Below, piece after piece: positions 21,526 to 28,068 of a stretch of 55,892 nucleotides of DNA. Under the pieces are notes generated by a model, which was given only the letters and a program-made list of their open reading frames with translations, had not been told where the DNA came from and ran no database searches. The translations under genes were made by a program, and so were the position numbers. The stretch's first letter is position 1. Each line of letters begins with the position of its first letter. Location of the stretch: contig CAKZQS010000043.1 of the NCBI GenBank assembly GCA_937141935.1, positions 89,152-145,043 on the forward strand. Direction: 5' to 3'. The DNA comes from an uncultured Ectothiorhodospiraceae bacterium. Its GTDB lineage: Bacteria; Pseudomonadota; Gammaproteobacteria; Nevskiales; Oceanococcaceae.

Positions 21526-22545
21526 ATGACCAAGACCGAAAGCTTTTTTGCCTTCACCGCCCGTGCCACCTGGCTGCTCTGCGCCGGCGTGGTGGTGTTG
21601 GGGGCCTATGTCCGGCTGACCGATGCCGGCCTGGGCTGCCCGGACTGGCCCGGCTGTTATGGCGAGATCCTGGTGCCGACCGACCACGCGGCCGCCAACG
21701 CCGCCTACCCGGAGCGGCCGCTGGAGACGGGCAAGGCCTGGCGCGAGATGATCCACCGCTATTTCGCCAGCGGCGTGGGCCTGGGCATCCTGCTGCTGCT
21801 GGTCAGCGGCTGGCGCCAGCGGCTGGCGCCACGCGGCTTTCTGCTCGGGCTGTTTGCGCTGGTGTGTTTTCAGGGCCTGCTGGGGGCCTGGACGGTGACC
21901 TGGCAACTCAAGCCGCTGGCGGTCAGTGCGCACCTGCTGGGCGGGATGGCCACGCTGGGCCTGCTGAGCTGGTTGAATCTAGGCTACCTGGCGCGCAAGC
22001 CCGCGCCGCCGGCGCCTGCGCGCATGCCCGCCTTCGCCGCGGTCGCGCTGCTGGTGCTGTTCGGCCAGATCTTTTTGGGCGGCTGGACCAGCAGCAACTA
22101 TGCGGCGCTGGCCTGCCCGGACTTCCCCACCTGCCATGCGCAGTGGTGGCCCGAGGCCGATTTCGCCGAGGCCTTCGTGCTCTGGCGCGGGCTGGAGCAG
22201 AACTACGAATACGGCGTGCTCGACTCGCCGGCCCGCATCGCCATCCACCTGACCCACCGCCTCGGCGCCATCGTGGCCACCCTGGTGCTGGGCGCGCTGG
22301 CCTGGGCGCTGTGGCGGGCCGCCGGCTGGCGCCGTTGGGGCGCGGCCCTGGGGGCCGCCCTGCTGGCCCAGGTGCTGATCGGCATCAGCACCGTGGAGCT
22401 GGGCCTGCCGCTGGCCGTGGCCACGGCGCATAACGCCGGGGCCGCCGTACTCATCGTTCTGCTCTTTGGGCTGAACGCGCGGCTGCGCGGTGCCAGCGCC
22501 GCTGCGAGTCCGGGCGCGCGCTTGCGCGGAGGCGCCGATGGCTGA
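21526..22545 (+). CDS. ctaA: Heme A synthase
   Basis: A 339-residue, eight-helix membrane enzyme of the COX15/CtaA family that oxidises the C8 methyl of heme O to give heme A. Family landmarks: GAYVRLTDAGLGCPDWPGCYG near the N-terminus, EMIHRYFASGVG (heme-ligand His), a SAHLLGGMATLG helix, and the second-half repeats HLTHRLGAIVATLVLG and TAHNAGAAVLIV. The ATG at 21526 follows the previous stop by 4 bp. It precedes ctaB, with which it overlaps by 8 bp. Confidence 0.94.
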   Translation: MTKTESFFAFTARATWLLCAGVVVLGAYVRLTDAGLGCPDWPGCYGEILVPTDHAAANAAYPERPLETGKAWREMIHRYFASGVGLGILLLLVSGWRQRLAPRGFLLGLFALVCFQGLLGAWTVTWQLKPLAVSAHLLGGMATLGLLSWLNLGYLARKPAPPAPARMPAFAAVALLVLFGQIFLGGWTSSNYAALACPDFPTCHAQWWPEADFAEAFVLWRGLEQNYEYGVLDSPARIAIHLTHRLGAIVATLVLGALAWALWRAAGWRRWGAALGAALLAQVLIGISTVELGLPLAVATAHNAGAAVLIVLLFGLNARLRGASAAASPGARLRGGADG

Positions 22546-23425
22546 CACTCTCGCCGCCATGAATGCCCGCTCCACCCTGCGCGAATACTGGGAACTGACC
22601 AAGCCGCGCGTCGTGATGCTGCTGGTGTTCACGGCCCTGATCGGCATGTTCCTGGCCACGCCGGAGCTGGTGCCGCTGCCGCTGCTGCTGGCGGCCAGCG
22701 CGGGCATCTGGCTCTGCGCGGCGGCCGCCGCCGTCATCAACCAGTGGGCCGACCGCGAGATCGATGCGCGCATGGCCCGCACGCGCAATCGGCCGCTGCC
22801 GACCGGTAGCGTCGGCACACCACAGGCGCTGGGTTTCGCCGCCCTGCTGTGCCTGCTGGGCGCCGCGCTGCTGGCGGTCTACGTGAACTGGCTGACGATG
22901 TGGCTGACGCTGGCCTCGCTGGTGGGTTATGCGCTGATTTACACGGTGTTCCTGAAGCGGGCGACGCCGCAGAACATCGTGATCGGCGGTGCCGCCGGCG
23001 CCGCCCCGCCGCTGCTGGGCTGGGTCGCCGTAACCGGCCAGGTCGAGGCCGAGGCGCTGATCCTGTTCCTGATCATCTTCGCCTGGACGCCGCCGCACTT
23101 CTGGGCGCTGGCGCTGGACCGCGAGAAGGAATACGCCCAGGCCGGCATCCCCATGCTGCCGGTCACCCACGGCGCGCAGTTCACCCGGCTGCACATCCTG
23201 CTGTACACGGCGATTCTCTTCGCCGTCAGTCTGCTGCCGCTGGGCATCGGCATGAGCGGCTGGATCTACGGCCTGATCGCCCTGCCGCTGGGCCTGCTGT
23301 ACTTCGTCAAGACCTGGCAGCTGTACCGCCGACCCTCGCGCGAACTACCCGGCTGGTTATTCACCTACAGCATCGTGTACCTGATGGTGATTTTCGCCGC
23401 GCTGCTGCTGGATCATTATCTGTAG
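22538..23425 (+). CDS. ctaB: Protoheme IX farnesyltransferase (heme O synthase)
   Basis: A 295-residue polytopic prenyltransferase that converts heme b to heme O, the substrate of CtaA. It has LTKPRVVMLLVFTALIG, the first Asp motif NQWADREIDARMARTRNRPL, the YTVFLKRATPQNIVIGG loop with GAAPPLLGW, and WTPPHFWALAL. ATG 22538 has a strong GGAGG ribosome-binding site and gives normal length. It ends the oxidase maturation genes. The usual sco/senC gene is not found after it. Confidence 0.95.
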   Translation: MADTLAAMNARSTLREYWELTKPRVVMLLVFTALIGMFLATPELVPLPLLLAASAGIWLCAAAAAVINQWADREIDARMARTRNRPLPTGSVGTPQALGFAALLCLLGAALLAVYVNWLTMWLTLASLVGYALIYTVFLKRATPQNIVIGGAAGAAPPLLGWVAVTGQVEAEALILFLIIFAWTPPHFWALALDREKEYAQAGIPMLPVTHGAQFTRLHILLYTAILFAVSLLPLGIGMSGWIYGLIALPLGLLYFVKTWQLYRRPSRELPGWLFTYSIVYLMVIFAALLLDHYL

Positions 23426-23443: not shown

Positions 23444-24322
23444 CTAATCCTTTGGCGGGCGCGGTATCAGCACGGGCGTGCGGGCCTTGTAGGCCTCGTA
23501 GTCCTCCTGGCCGCCCCATTTTTCGTCGGCGCGCTCTTCCAGCATCGGAATGCCGCTGACGCGGATCAGCAGGAAGGCGACGAACAGCGGTGACAGCCAG
23601 CCCAGCCATTGCCAGCCGGCGAAGGTGGGCGTGGCGATCAGCGCGATGCCGGTCCACAGCGTGATCTCGCCAAAGTAGTTGGGGTGGCGCGACCAGCGCC
23701 ACAGCCCGACGTCCACGAAGCGGTTCTTGTTCTCCGGCGTCGCGTTGAAGGCCGACTTCTGGCCGTCGGCGACCGCCTCGATGACAAAGCCGGCAATCCA
23801 CACCGCCAGGCCCAGCGCGGCGAGGGCGCCAAAGGGCTCGCTGCCGGCCTGGCTGATGGCGATCAGCGCGGCGTACAGCGTCAGCACCACCCACAGCCCC
23901 TGCAGCGTCCAGGTCATGGCGAAGCGCAGTGGTTTGGTCTTGATCTCGTCGAAGCGGCCGTCCTTGCCGCTGGCGCGAATGCGGCGGAACAGGAACTGCC
24001 CCAAGCGCCCGGCCCAGGCGCTGACCAGCACGGCCAGCAGCAGCGTGCGCGTGTCCATGCCCTCGGCCAGACGGGTACCGGCGGCGATCCAGATCACCGT
24101 CAGGTAGGTCAGGCTGCCGGTCAGGTCGAAATAGTGCTCGCTCTGGCTCAGGTAGGAGGGCACGAAAACGGCCCACTGCACGCCCAGCGCCAGCAGGGCC
24201 AGTGCCGGCAGCAGCGGCAGACCGGCCAGCGTGCGGCTGCCGTCGTCGGCCAGCCAGGCCAGCCCCAGCGCGATGGCGGTGGCGATCAGGATGATGGCGA
24301 GGTGCTTGAGCGCGTCGGGCAT
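23444..24322 (-). CDS. DUF1295 (steroid 5-alpha-reductase/ICMT-like) membrane protein
   Basis: A 292-residue, multi-helix membrane protein. The C-terminal part has the DUF1295 signature GLWRWSRHPNYFGEITLWTG and a final IPMLEERADEKWGGQEDYEA segment with an RTPVLIPRPPK tail; NAD(P)H or SAM binding is expected for the wider superfamily, but substrates of DUF1295 proteins are unknown. The start chosen is ATG 24322 (MPDALKHLAI), since the upstream TTG would add only six residues. It converges on ctaB, 18 bp away, and no operon partner is seen. Confidence 0.86.
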   Translation of the reverse strand: MPDALKHLAIILIATAIALGLAWLADDGSRTLAGLPLLPALALLALGVQWAVFVPSYLSQSEHYFDLTGSLTYLTVIWIAAGTRLAEGMDTRTLLLAVLVSAWAGRLGQFLFRRIRASGKDGRFDEIKTKPLRFAMTWTLQGLWVVLTLYAALIAISQAGSEPFGALAALGLAVWIAGFVIEAVADGQKSAFNATPENKNRFVDVGLWRWSRHPNYFGEITLWTGIALIATPTFAGWQWLGWLSPLFVAFLLIRVSGIPMLEERADEKWGGQEDYEAYKARTPVLIPRPPKD

Positions 24323-24422
24323 GGAGCGTCCGCAGGGCAAATCCGGACTTGCAGCCTACGTCATTGGCCCGGTGCTGCCGAGCGCTGTGGGCGCAACGTC
24401 ATCGCGCGGGGCCACCCTGAAG

Positions 24423-24572: not shown

Positions 24573-25445
24573 TTAGGCGGCTTCCAGCGCCTTGCGGATC
24601 TTCTTCATCGCGGCCGCTTCGATCTGGCGGATGCGCTCGGCCGAGACGCCATATTCGTTGGCCAGTTCCTGCAGGCCGGTCTTGGTGTCGCGGTACATCC
24701 AGCGGCGGCGGATGATGTCCTGCGAGCGCTCATCCAGGGCGGATACGGCCTGCTGCATCGTCTGCATCTGCCGCTCTTCCCATTCGGCCTCCTCGACGGC
24801 GCCGGCCGGGTCCTGGCCCTCGGCCGCGAGGTATTCCTCGGGGGCGTAGGGGGCATCCTCGGAGTCGCCACTGCCGCCCAGGCTGGTGAAGTCGATGTCT
24901 TGGCCGGACAGCCGGCGCTCCATCTGCAGCACGGTTTCCGGCTTGACGTCGAGGTCGCGGGCCACGGCCTCCACCTCGGCCAGGTTCATCCAGCCCAGGC
25001 GCTTTTTCTTGCTGCGCAGGTTAAAGAACAGCTTGCGTTGCGCCTTGGTGGTCGCGATCTTGACGATGCGCCAGTTGCGCAGGATGAACTCGTGGATTTC
25101 GGCCTTGATCCAGTGCACCGCAAAGCTGATCAGGCGCACGCCCACCTCGGGGTCGAAGCGCTTGACCGCCTTCATCAGGCCGATGTTGCCTTCCTGCACC
25201 AGGTCGGCCAGCGGCAGGCCGTAGCCCATGTAGCCGCGGGCGATGTGCACCACATGGCGCAAATTGGCCAGGATCAGCGATTGCGCCGCCTGCAGGTCTT
25301 CCTGCTCATGCAGCTCGCGCGCCAGGCGTTGCTCGTCCTCGCTCGTCAGAACCGGCACGCGGTTCACGTAGGCGATATAAGCATCCAGGCTGCCCGCCAG
25401 CGGGGCCGGCATCTGGGCGTTGTGCAAGGTGATGGCGGTATTCAT
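24573..25445 (-). CDS. rpoH: RNA polymerase heat-shock sigma factor (sigma-32)
   Basis: A 290-residue sigma-70-family factor. Region 2 has [21 protein letters not shown] and [23 protein letters not shown], the RpoH box QRKLFFNLR is at 136-144, and region 4 ends with [20 protein letters not shown]. It directs transcription of chaperone and protease genes. ATG 25445 is preferred over the in-frame ATG at 25460 because GGGAGA lies 8 bp upstream of the former. The gene follows ftsX on the same strand, the conserved ftsYEX-rpoH order, but has its own promoter overlapped by a CIRCE element. Confidence 0.97.
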
Positions 25446-25466
25446 CGCAGAATCTCCCATGCGGCT

Positions 25467-25496
25467 AATTTAGCACTCTCACACCGAGAGTGCCAA
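25467..25496 (-). promoter_or_regulatory. rpoH promoter overlapped by a CIRCE (HrcA) operator
   Basis: Reading the plus strand, TTAGCACTC (25470-25478), nine bases, and GAGTGCCAA (25488-25496) match CIRCE (TTAGCACTC-N9-GAGTGCTAA) at 17 of 18 arm positions. On the minus strand the same DNA contains a sigma-70 promoter: -35 TTGGCA (25496-25491), an 18-bp spacer, and extended -10 TGCTAAATT (25475-25467), 22 bp from the rpoH ATG. HrcA bound here would block the promoter. CIRCE is known mainly at groESL and dnaK operons. Confidence 0.88.
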
Positions 25497-25538
25497 CTGC
25501 GCGTCTGACACCCGCCTTTGGGGGAAGTTCCGCCCTTT

Positions 25539-26417
25539 TCAAGCCCGGCCGTCGCCGCGGCGCATCTGCTCCAGTTGCCAGCCCACGACCAGCGCCGTGG
25601 TGCCGCCGGCGAGCAGCGGCGCGGCAAAAAAGAGCGCCAGCAGGGCCCCGGCACCGACCTGCGGCGCCGCCACCGCCACCCCCAGGGCCTGCTGGATGGC
25701 CGCCAGCGGCGTGGCCAGTGCCTGCGCACCCAGCGTCAGCAACAGCGCCGCCAGCGCGGCCGCCAGCACGCCCAGCAGCACACTGTGGACCAGGTGCGGG
25801 CGCAGGATGAAGCCGTCGTTGGCGCCCAGCAGCGTCAGCACCGTAATCGTGGGTCGTTCCTGGGCCATGCGCCCGGCCACGCTGCCGGCGACGATGGCCA
25901 GGCCGGCCGCGACCAGCACCAGCGTCAGGCCCAGGCCGATGCGCCGCAGGCTGCGGTACAGCGCCTGGCTACGCTCCAGCTCGGCGCGGTCCCACCACAG
26001 GCTGGCCACGCCGGGCAGTCGCTCCCAGCCCTCGACCCGCGCGGCGCTGGCCGCGGCCTCCAGGCCGGCCGGCAGCTGCACCGTCAGCGTGGGCGGCAGC
26101 TCCAGGCCTTGCAGGCCCGGCGCATCGGGTTCCAGACCCAGAAATTCGGCGAAGGCCTGCCGCGCGGCCGCGGCGTCGAGGAACTCGCTGGCCTGCAGCG
26201 GGCCATCGGCGCGCAGCCGGCGCTCGATGGCGGCGGCGTCCTCGCCCGGCTCCAGGAACAGCACCACGCTGCCACTGCCGCGGGCGTCCAGCGCGCTGCC
26301 CAGCGCGTCGTGCAGCAGCCACAGCCAGGCCGGCAGCGCCAGCGCGCTGGCGACCACCAGCACGCTGACCACGTCGCCCAGCACCCGCGTGCGGCGCCGG
26401 CTCCAGCGCGCCATCAT
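25539..26417 (-). CDS. ftsX: Cell division permease FtsX
   Basis: A 292-residue membrane protein with the FtsX layout: an N-terminal cytoplasmic segment, TM1 (VVSVLVVASALALPAWLWLL), a periplasmic domain of about 130 residues, then three helices, with GANDGFILRPHLVHSVLLG between TM2 and TM3. FtsEX activates peptidoglycan hydrolases at the septum. Two adjacent ATG codons start the gene; the first overlaps the ftsE stop (ATGA). The C-terminus is short and basic (MRRGDGRA). Confidence 0.92.
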   Translation of the reverse strand: MMARWSRRRTRVLGDVVSVLVVASALALPAWLWLLHDALGSALDARGSGSVVLFLEPGEDAAAIERRLRADGPLQASEFLDAAAARQAFAEFLGLEPDAPGLQGLELPPTLTVQLPAGLEAAASAARVEGWERLPGVASLWWDRAELERSQALYRSLRRIGLGLTLVLVAAGLAIVAGSVAGRMAQERPTITVLTLLGANDGFILRPHLVHSVLLGVLAAALAALLLTLGAQALATPLAAIQQALGVAVAAPQVGAGALLALFFAAPLLAGGTTALVVGWQLEQMRRGDGRA

Positions 26418-27124
26418 GGCGGCCCCACCGCTCCGGGTTGCTCGGGCGCGCCGGGCCGCTCCACGACGATGCGCCGCTCGCGGATGACCCAGCGCCGCGC
26501 CGGGTGGGTCGCAATCAGCGACTCGTCATGGCTGGCCACGATCAGGCTGACGCCACGGGCATTGATCTGCCGGAACAGGTCCAGGATGTCGCGGGCCAGC
26601 GCGGGGTCGAGGTTGCCGGTGGGCTCGTCGGCCAGCACCAGGCGCGGGCCGGCCACCAGCGCGCGGGCAATCGCCACGCGGGCCGCTTCGCCGCCGGAGA
26701 GGTGGGCCGGGTGGCTCTCACCGCGCCCCTCCAGGCCGACCCGGCGCAGCGCCGAGGCCACGCGGCGGGCCTTGTCGGCCGGGTTCAGGCCGCCACGGAT
26801 GTCCAGGCTGAGCTGCACGTTGGCGGCCACGCTGCGATCCATCAGCAGCATCGGGTCCTGGAAGATCAGGCCCAGGTGGCGGCGGTAGAAGGGCATGTCC
26901 TGCGGCGGCAGCGCGGTGATGTCGCGGCCGTTGACATGCAGCTGACCATGCGAGGGCCGCTCGATGCCGGCGATCAGCCGCAGCAGCGTGCTTTTGCCGG
27001 AGCCCGAGGGGCCGGTGAGCCAGACAAACTCGCCCTCGTCCAGCTGGGCGCAAACCTGGTCCAGCACGCGCTCGCCCGGGGGGTAGCGCTTGCTGACCGC
27101 GGTCAGCTGGACCAGCTCGGGCAT
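26414..27124 (-). CDS. ftsE: Cell division ATP-binding protein FtsE
   Basis: A 236-residue ABC ATPase with Walker A GPSGSGKST (38-46), the Q-loop GLIFQDPML, signature LSGGEAARVAIARAL, Walker B LVLADEPTGNLDP and the switch His in VASHDESL. Partner of FtsX in the division complex. The ATG at 27124 (MPELVQLTAVSKRYP) gives the standard length; a longer frame upstream is antisense sequence inside ftsY. It starts 3 bp downstream of the ftsY stop and overlaps ftsX by 4 bp. Confidence 0.95.
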   Translation of the reverse strand: MPELVQLTAVSKRYPPGERVLDQVCAQLDEGEFVWLTGPSGSGKSTLLRLIAGIERPSHGQLHVNGRDITALPPQDMPFYRRHLGLIFQDPMLLMDRSVAANVQLSLDIRGGLNPADKARRVASALRRVGLEGRGESHPAHLSGGEAARVAIARALVAGPRLVLADEPTGNLDPALARDILDLFRQINARGVSLIVASHDESLIATHPARRWVIRERRIVVERPGAPEQPGAVGPP

Positions 27125-27126
27125 GC

Positions 27127-28068
27127 TTAGCTCGGCGCCGTGCCGAGCAGCGCATCCACGAAGGCCTCGGCCTCGAACACGCCCAGATCCTCGAGCTGCT
27201 CGCCGACGCCGATGTAGCGGATCGGCAGCGCCAGGCGTTCGGCGATGGCGAACACGGTGCCGCCGCGCGCGGTGCCATCGAGCTTGGTGATGGCCAGGCC
27301 CGTCAGGCCCACGGCCTCGTGGAACTGCACCGCCTGGTGCAGCGCGTTGTGCCCGGCGGTGGCATCGACCACCAGCAACACCTCGTGCGGGGCGTAGGCC
27401 TCCTGCTTTTGCAGCACGCGCTTGATCTTGCGCAGCTCGTCCATCAGGCCGGCCTGCGTGTGCAGGCGGCCGGCCGTGTCGGCCAGCAGCACGTCGGCGC
27501 CACGGGCGCGCGCGGCCGAGAAGGCATCGAAGACCACCGAGGCGGCATCGGCGTTCTGGCCCTGCTCGATGATCTGCACGCCCCCGCGCTCGGCCCACTG
27601 GGCGAGCTGGCGCACGGCGCCGGCGCGGTAGGTGTCGCCGGCGGCCACGTAGACCTGGCGCCCCTCGGCGCCCAGCTTGGCGGCGATCTTGCCCAGCGTG
27701 GTCGTCTTGCCCACGCCGTTGACGCCGACGCCCATCAGCACGAAGGGCTTGATGAACTCCGGGAACTCCAGCGGCGCCTCGCAGGGCTTGAGCATGTCGA
27801 TCAGCGTGCGCCGCAGCAGCGCGCGCAGCTGGTCGGCGCGCTTGATGCGGCCCGCGTTGACCTCGCGCCGCAGCGTGTCGGTGATCTTGCTGGCCGCGGC
27901 GACGCCGAGGTCGGCGGTCAGCAGCAGGTCCTCGAAATCGTCCAGCGCGGCGGCGTCGATCTGCTGGCCGGGCAGCAGGTTGCCCAGGTCGTAGGTCAGC
28001 CAGGAGTCGCCGCGGTTGATCTTGGCGCGCATGCGCCCGATGAAGCCGGGCGCGGATTCAGCCGTCAT
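27127..28068 (-). CDS. ftsY: Signal recognition particle receptor FtsY
   Basis: A 313-residue SRP-type GTPase. It has an N domain (about 1-95) and a G domain with P-loop GVNGVGKTT (115-123), DTYRAGAVRQL, DTAGRLHTQ and the TKLDGTARGG guanine-specificity segment, and an IGVGEQLEDLGVF C-terminus. It lacks the long acidic A domain of E. coli FtsY, as do many short FtsY proteins. FtsY docks ribosome-nascent chain-SRP complexes at the membrane translocon. First gene of ftsY-ftsE-ftsX, with a promoter candidate overlapping the preceding stop codon. Confidence 0.96.
   Translation of the reverse strand: MTAESAPGFIGRMRAKINRGDSWLTYDLGNLLPGQQIDAAALDDFEDLLLTADLGVAAASKITDTLRREVNAGRIKRADQLRALLRRTLIDMLKPCEAPLEFPEFIKPFVLMGVGVNGVGKTTTLGKIAAKLGAEGRQVYVAAGDTYRAGAVRQLAQWAERGGVQIIEQGQNADAASVVFDAFSAARARGADVLLADTAGRLHTQAGLMDELRKIKRVLQKQEAYAPHEVLLVVDATAGHNALHQAVQFHEAVGLTGLAITKLDGTARGGTVFAIAERLALPIRYIGVGEQLEDLGVFEAEAFVDALLGTAPS

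What the first reader, a model, noticed from the sequence alone, without database searches (positions are those of the whole stretch)
25467..25496. CIRCE operator over the rpoH promoter: HrcA may control the heat-shock sigma factor
A 17/18 match to CIRCE overlaps a good sigma-70 promoter whose extended -10 is 22 bp from the rpoH start. CIRCE is normally at groESL and dnaK operons. Here the repressor that senses GroEL availability would directly set sigma-32 synthesis, joining the two heat-shock circuits in one hierarchy.
Basis: partly seen in the sequence, partly recalled or inferred. Interest (0 to 1): 0.62.

Follow-up and report, generated by a model that had tools for sequence, protein, structure and literature searches.

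The report
HrcA operator overlapping the rpoH promoter
The DNA switch that normally lets bacteria sense whether they have enough GroEL chaperone also sits on the promoter of the master heat-shock sigma factor here, and the same wiring turns up in most sampled families of this class that keep the repressor HrcA, although E. coli lacks that repressor.

Summary
Window 25470-25496 holds a CIRCE with 17 of 18 consensus bases, coinciding with an extended -10 sigma-70-type promoter of rpoH. The genome has hrcA and two CIRCE sites with up to 3 mismatches, at rpoH and groESL.

It is no local oddity. In a class-wide sample of nearly one genome per family, 79 of 86 rpoH loci of hrcA-bearing genomes have it, against 8 of 32 where no hrcA was found; controls gave none. 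It is absent at 22 loci from elsewhere in the phylum.

At rpoH the operator spans -35 to -10; at groES it follows the -10. A full-consensus sigma-E promoter lies 7 nt upstream of CIRCE, shared by the two family members examined.

Best reading: HrcA represses rpoH and groESL, GroEL shortage relieves both, and sigma-E adds an envelope-stress input. Binding and expression are untested. CIRCE at rpoH was predicted in Geobacter sulfurreducens in 2004 (PMC545781); breadth, register and sigma-E pairing are the fresher points.

The parts
25470..25496 (-). CIRCE operator, TTGGCACTC-N9-GAGTGCTAA, 17 of 18 consensus bases
   Evidence: the only site in the window, 0 in 100 shuffles; conserved in relatives
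25491..25496 (-). -35 of the sigma-70-type promoter (TTGGCA), inside the left CIRCE arm
25467..25475 (-). extended -10 (TGCTAAATT; hexamer 25472-25467); its first six bases lie in the right CIRCE arm
   Evidence: at 87 class-wide sites T at the last hexamer position in 81
25504..25531 (-). sigma-E-type promoter GGAACTT-N16-TCAGA; predicted start about 25497, at the edge of CIRCE
   Evidence: 10 of 10 scored letters, 1 of 5000 shuffles; aligned in 5 genomes; rpoE in the genome
25516..25543 (-). sigma-32-like match CTTGAAA-N13-CCCCAA overlapping the sigma-E promoter; not found in G065 or G066, so doubtful
   Evidence: 12 of 13, 0 of 5000 shuffles
25454..25458 (-). Shine-Dalgarno-like GGGAG for the ATG at 25445
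   Evidence: read in the sequence; GGGAGA also in G065 and G066
24573..25445 (-). rpoH, heat-shock sigma factor (longest ORF runs to 25460)
25539..26417 (-). ftsX, the upstream gene
   Evidence: TIGR00439, 110.7 bits, best hit, below the cut-off of 255
26414..27127 (-). ftsE
   Evidence: TIGR02673, 233.6 bits, best hit, below the cut-off of 264.85
27127..28068 (-). ftsY
   Evidence: TIGR00064, 322.9 bits, above the cut-off of 260.7

Best explanation
The element is the HrcA operator of rpoH. In unstressed cells HrcA, kept active by free GroEL, binds CIRCE and covers the whole -35 to -10 region, so sigma-70 polymerase cannot start rpoH transcription. When misfolded protein occupies GroEL, HrcA loses activity; rpoH and groESL are derepressed together, and the extra sigma-32 drives the rest of the regulon, including groESL and dnaK from sigma-32-like promoters. 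Rising GroEL re-activates HrcA and closes the loop. A sigma-E promoter whose start point falls at the edge of CIRCE adds an envelope-stress input, and HrcA bound at CIRCE may hinder it too. Shown by sequence: operator, promoter overlap, hrcA, rpoE, conservation, association with hrcA. Inferred: binding, repression, GroEL sensing (recalled general knowledge of HrcA), gating of sigma-E.
For: Operator and promoter at one place. hrcA in the genome, TIGR00331 250.5 bits over its cut-off of 197.2. Just two CIRCE sites with up to 3 mismatches in 3.57 Mb, 0 in the reversed-pattern control, at rpoH and upstream of groES-groEL. Class sample: 79 of 86 rpoH loci of hrcA-bearing genomes against 8 of 32 of the others; no match with up to 3 mismatches at any of the 118 loci in the reversed-pattern or the shuffled control (Fisher 2e-12). 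Order sample: 57 of 65 against 1 of 17; of the 8 misses G007 and G010 have 4 mismatches and G031 and G032 have perfect arms with an 8-base spacer. The eight second RpoH-like genes of the order have no site. Bases outside the operator that complete a -10 are conserved at rpoH (T in 81 of 87) and not at groES (3 of 28).
Against: No binding, transcript or expression data. Four hrcA-bearing genomes of the order (G061-G063, G068) have no recognisable site at rpoH, and of the 7 misses in the class sample only G196 has an 8-base-spacer variant, so the link is dispensable. Three near-complete class genomes (G100, G211, G158) keep the site although no hrcA was found; promoter function alone may preserve much of it. 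The own HrcA scores lower against PF01628 (165.7 bits) than the others of the order except a partial copy (G009) and a contig-end fragment (G057). Relatedness makes the Fisher values too small, most of all in the order sample.
Confidence: 0.82

Rival explanations
1. The palindrome is kept only as promoter sequence: TTGGCA and TGCTAAATT are a -35 and an extended -10 that happen to resemble CIRCE, and HrcA does not act there.
For: Both hexamers fall in or on the arms; three near-complete genomes without detected hrcA keep the site; at some diverged loci only the right arm with its -10 remains (G114 and G139 without hrcA, G120 with hrcA).
Against: A promoter does not need the inner arm bases CTC and GAG, which are 93 to 100% conserved at 87 sites, though those sites were preselected at up to 3 mismatches. 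The site goes with hrcA. The second RpoH-like genes lack it.
Confidence: 0.07
2. HrcA binds, but rpoH is governed mainly by other means (sigma-E, translation, protein stability), so the operator only sets the basal level. This does not exclude the best explanation.
For: A full-consensus sigma-E promoter lies next to the operator and is shared by G065 and G066 of the family; order loci without the site often have one (14 of 23 score 9 or 10 of 10, against 2 of 115 shuffles, although 2 of the 14, G010 and G031, overlap CIRCE variants). Chaperone control of sigma-32 activity and stability is general knowledge (recalled).
Against: Strong conservation of the operator in hrcA-bearing genomes. Most CIRCE-bearing loci score below 9 for sigma-E (75 of 87 in the class, 52 of 58 in the order). 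No Rfam RNA family matches 24900-25700 up to E 1, and the 121 nt from 25460 fold no better than shuffles (z 0.37), so no thermometer is evident.
Confidence: 0.3
3. rpoH is positively autoregulated by sigma-32 through CTTGAAA-N13-CCCCAA, with HrcA as a brake.
For: 12 of 13 consensus in this genome, 0 of 5000 shuffles; 16 of 58 order loci score 11 or more against 0 of 290 shuffles.
Against: Not present in the congener G065 or in G066, where the overlapping sigma-E promoter is; only 3 of 87 in the class sample (0.9% of shuffles).
Confidence: 0.15

Closest known systems
CIRCE upstream of rpoH in Geobacter sulfurreducens (PMC545781, text and Table 8; passages read)
   Same: A perfect CIRCE at -51 from the rpoH start, predicted together with sites at groESL and hrcA-grpE-dnaK-dnaJ
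   Different: A delta-proteobacterium (as named there), the only one of those studied with the site at rpoH; no promoter register or sigma-E promoter described in the passages read. Here a different lineage, and no CIRCE at the dnaK operon
HrcA/CIRCE control of groESL
   Same: Same operator and, by inference, same repressor; also present in this genome at G000:C42:6502-6528
   Different: At groES the operator follows a TATNAT -10; at rpoH it spans -35 to -10
Escherichia coli rpoH regulation (recalled: several sigma-70 promoters, a sigma-E promoter P3, an mRNA thermometer, chaperone-controlled stability)
   Same: ftsY-ftsE-ftsX-rpoH gene order (E. coli side recalled) and a sigma-E promoter
   Different: E. 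coli gave no HrcA match with PF01628 (control); here HrcA is expected to act at transcription, and the predicted sigma-70 leader is only about 15 nt

Membership tests
HrcA/CIRCE regulon | Inverted repeat TTAGCACTC-N9-GAGTGCTAA near a promoter | tested here: met
   17 of 18, overlapping the promoter
HrcA/CIRCE regulon | hrcA in the same genome | tested here: met
HrcA/CIRCE regulon | groESL under CIRCE in the same genome | tested here: met
   site with 2 mismatches, upstream of groES-groEL
HrcA/CIRCE regulon | Site conserved at the same gene in relatives that have hrcA | tested here: met
   57 of 65 loci, 79 of 86 loci
HrcA/CIRCE regulon | HrcA binds and represses, relieved by heat | not testable with these tools
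   needs gel shift, deletion and expression data
Sigma-E (RpoE) promoter | GGAACTT-N16-TCNNA (consensus recalled) and an rpoE gene | tested here: met
rpoH mRNA thermometer | Structured 5' region or Rfam match | tested here: inconclusive
   no Rfam match to E 1; z-score 0.37

The most novel reading that the evidence does not exclude
HrcA control of rpoH is the ancestral wiring of the heat-shock response in this whole class (GTDB Gammaproteobacteria, which takes in the beta-proteobacteria; the class name is inferred from the named RpoH relatives). The E. coli type of control is what remained in lineages that lost hrcA. At rpoH the operator took a fixed register over the core promoter, and in several families it also sits at the start point of a sigma-E promoter, so that one operator gates both the cytosolic and the envelope stress inputs.
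Probability: 0.55. Interest if true: 0.62.

Novelty: new member of a known kind. Interest (0 to 1): 0.45.

Why it matters
General accounts (recalled) treat the sigma-32 circuit and the HrcA circuit as alternatives, or as parallel branches meeting at groESL. If HrcA sets sigma-32 synthesis in most hrcA-bearing families of this class, then GroEL availability controls the top of the cascade there, and the E. coli layout is a poor default for them. The prediction is cheap to test, and natural losses of hrcA give ready comparisons.

Tried and rejected
Chance palindrome: rejected. No hrcA: rejected. Site private to this genome: rejected. CIRCE at the own hrcA-grpE-dnaK-dnaJ operon: none with up to 5 mismatches in the 19 kb around it (the pattern is its own reverse complement, so one strand suffices). 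Upstream of hrcA in relatives: read for 30 of the 66 hrcA-bearing genomes of the order, the best-scoring ones; 1 of 30 (G002) had a site with up to 3 mismatches, the other 29 had 6 or more. A conserved sigma-32 promoter at rpoH: looked strong in this genome, then lost to the overlapping sigma-E promoter that near relatives share. RNA thermometer: no sign. In the phylum sample (118 of 120 genomes with rpoH) I examined 22 loci of 21 families outside the class and 23 further loci inside it: 0 of 22 and 3 of 23 have the site; hrcA was not looked up in either set.

Literature: ten searches. Nine concerned CIRCE or HrcA with rpoH or sigma-32, one the HrcA regulon in RegPrecise work. Of the eight papers that I opened by term search, only PMC545781 reports CIRCE at rpoH. 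Most listed papers were seen as listings only; 46 hold both HrcA and rpoH, 40 of them listed. In PMC5343134, PMC3223726 and PMC3840689 the term searches found no HrcA; PMC1978210 only cites Permina and Gelfand; the passages seen of PMC10490939, PMC10696704 and PMC3135505 say nothing on CIRCE at rpoH. [quoted passage not shown] it may already report such sites. I also recall, without having read it here, a 2007 paper by Ueki and Lovley on RpoH of Geobacter sulfurreducens that may treat HrcA at rpoH. I therefore make no claim that the breadth is absent from print.

Full report
What was checked. The window holds one CIRCE match with up to 3 mismatches, at 25470-25496 with 1 mismatch, and none in 100 shuffles. 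Read in the rpoH direction it is TTGGCACTC-N9-GAGTGCTAA. The only sigma-70-like promoter found in 25200-26700 is TTGGCA-18-TAAATT with an upstream TG, 25496-25467. So the -35 is the first six bases of CIRCE, and the -10 begins with its last three. The gene downstream is rpoH by TIGR02392 and NF005143, both above cut-off. The ATG at 25445, with GGGAG before it, is the likelier start; the ATG at 25460 is in frame and would lie at or near the predicted transcript start. The predicted sigma-70 leader is then about 15 nt (from; inference). Upstream genes are ftsX, ftsE and ftsY on the same strand; ftsX and ftsE score below the NCBIfam cut-offs but are the best hits.

The rest of the circuit in this genome. 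The assembly is 3.57 Mb in 52 contigs, 98.29% complete. It has one hrcA in the order hrcA-grpE-dnaK-dnaJ. The whole genome has two CIRCE sites with up to 3 mismatches and none for the reversed pattern. The second, with 2 mismatches, lies upstream of groES and groEL, just after a sigma-32-like CTTGAAA-N13-CCCCAA (read in the sequence). The dnaK operon has no CIRCE; a CTTGAAA motif lies upstream of dnaK (read by eye). rpoE is present, 289.5 bits over its cut-off.

Order sample. Of 85 genomes, 81 have rpoH at E 1e-60 and 66 have hrcA. I read upstream of 82 primary loci (one genome has two) and 8 second RpoH-like genes. CIRCE with up to 3 mismatches: 57 of 65 loci in hrcA-bearing genomes, 1 of 17 in the others (G011, 79% complete), 0 of 8 second genes (best 7 to 9 mismatches). 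Among the 8 misses with hrcA, G007 and G010 have 4 mismatches, and G031 and G032 have perfect arms with an 8-base spacer; G061-G063 and G068 have nothing recognisable. In the own family the three genomes with rpoH (G000, G065, G066) all have the site; the fourth, G067, gave neither rpoH nor hrcA but has one CIRCE, not examined further.

Class sample. 134 genomes drawn evenly, one per family except two of the own family; 117 have rpoH at E 1e-100 and 95 have hrcA. Of 118 rpoH loci read, 79 of 86 in hrcA-bearing genomes have the site (44 perfect) and 8 of 32 in the rest. With up to 3 mismatches the reversed-pattern and shuffled controls gave 0 of 118 each; with 4 mismatches each gave 1. Of the 8, four genomes are 62 to 85% complete; G177 has an hrcA fragment at a contig end; G100, G211 and G158 are 97 to 99% complete and gave no hrcA in either search. 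These three speak against a strict tie. Of the 7 misses with hrcA, G196 has an 8-base-spacer variant with 3 mismatches, G120 keeps the right arm only, one is a second rpoH locus of G115, and four (G097, G109, G155, G204) show nothing. Outside the class but in the phylum, 0 of 22 loci (21 families) have the site; of 23 further same-class loci in that sample 3 have it. hrcA was not looked up in those 45 genomes. E. coli gave no PF01628 match (control).

Two registers. At 87 class-wide rpoH sites the bases after the right arm complete a -10: T at the sixth hexamer position in 81 of 87, against 3 of 28 at groES sites (Fisher 1.6e-16). At groES the operator instead follows a TATNAT: T at -4 in 25 of 28 against 15 of 87. 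groES loci were read for 30 loci only, the best-scoring of the class sample (131 of 134 genomes have one); 28 of the 30 had the site, one of them in a genome without detected hrcA (G152). The left-arm change A to G at position 3, seen here and in 23 of 87 rpoH sites in all (2 of 28 at groES, p 0.035), brings the -35 closer to TTGACA. So operator and core promoter at rpoH are one element, in line with repression by exclusion of polymerase.

A sigma-E promoter beside it. GGAACTT-N16-TCAGA lies at 25531-25504, 7 nt upstream of CIRCE; 1 of 5000 shuffles reached its score. It aligns with GGAACTT or TGAACTT and a matching -10 in G065 (same genus), G066 (same family), G001 and G002 (other families), 3 to 10 nt upstream of CIRCE. 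In the class sample 9 of 87 CIRCE-bearing loci (this genome and G065 among them) have a perfect one against 0 of 435 shuffles, 8 of the 9 within 3 to 15 nt of CIRCE. It is a minority feature: 75 of 87 class loci and 52 of 58 order loci with CIRCE score below 9 of 10. Among order loci without CIRCE, 6 of 23 are perfect (0 of 115 shuffles) and 14 of 23 score 9 or 10 (2 of 115); two of the 14 (G010, G031) overlap CIRCE variants and should not be counted as independent. A sigma-32-like match in the same place is not shared by G065 or G066 and is the weaker reading here, though 16 of 58 order loci have one somewhere upstream.

Mechanism. Shown: the parts, their overlap, their conservation and their association with hrcA. 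Inferred: HrcA binds when GroEL is free and lets go when GroEL is occupied (general knowledge of HrcA, recalled), so rpoH and groESL rise together; sigma-32 then acts on groESL, dnaK and the rest; GroEL closes the loop. The sigma-E start would fall at about 25497, at the operator's edge, so HrcA may limit that promoter as well; this is a guess.

What is known. PMC545781 lists CIRCE at -51 of rpoH in Geobacter sulfurreducens and states that groESL is the only constant HrcA target in the delta-proteobacteria it studied (passages read). The present data suggest that in this class rpoH is close to a constant target as well. I rate it a new member of a known kind, with an unusually wide distribution and a sigma-E pairing as the less familiar features.

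Noticed in passing
L015 2900-2926 and 2934-2960: Catenovulum sp. 2E275 has two CIRCE-like sites in tandem upstream of rpoH (0 and 1 mismatch).
   Followed up: no
   Followed up: no
G031 and G032 (L158, L292), upstream of rpoH: Two genomes of one genus have perfect CIRCE arms with an 8-base instead of a 9-base spacer at rpoH.
   Followed up: partly
family f4 genomes, e.g. L293 985-1011: A recurrent second site with arms TTAGCACTC and GGCTGCTAA, 2 mismatches, in many of the listed f4 genomes (list cut short); in G011 it lies upstream of a groEL motif on the opposite strand.
   Followed up: partly
G100 (L277), G211 (L231), G158 (L200): Near-complete genomes without detected hrcA that still carry CIRCE at rpoH.
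   Followed up: partly
25445-25472: The predicted sigma-70 start falls on or near the in-frame ATG at 25460, so a leaderless start at 25460 cannot be excluded; G065 has the same in-frame pair of ATGs.
   Followed up: no
23444-24340: ORF beside ctaB (22490-23425) with no NCBIfam match.
   Followed up: no
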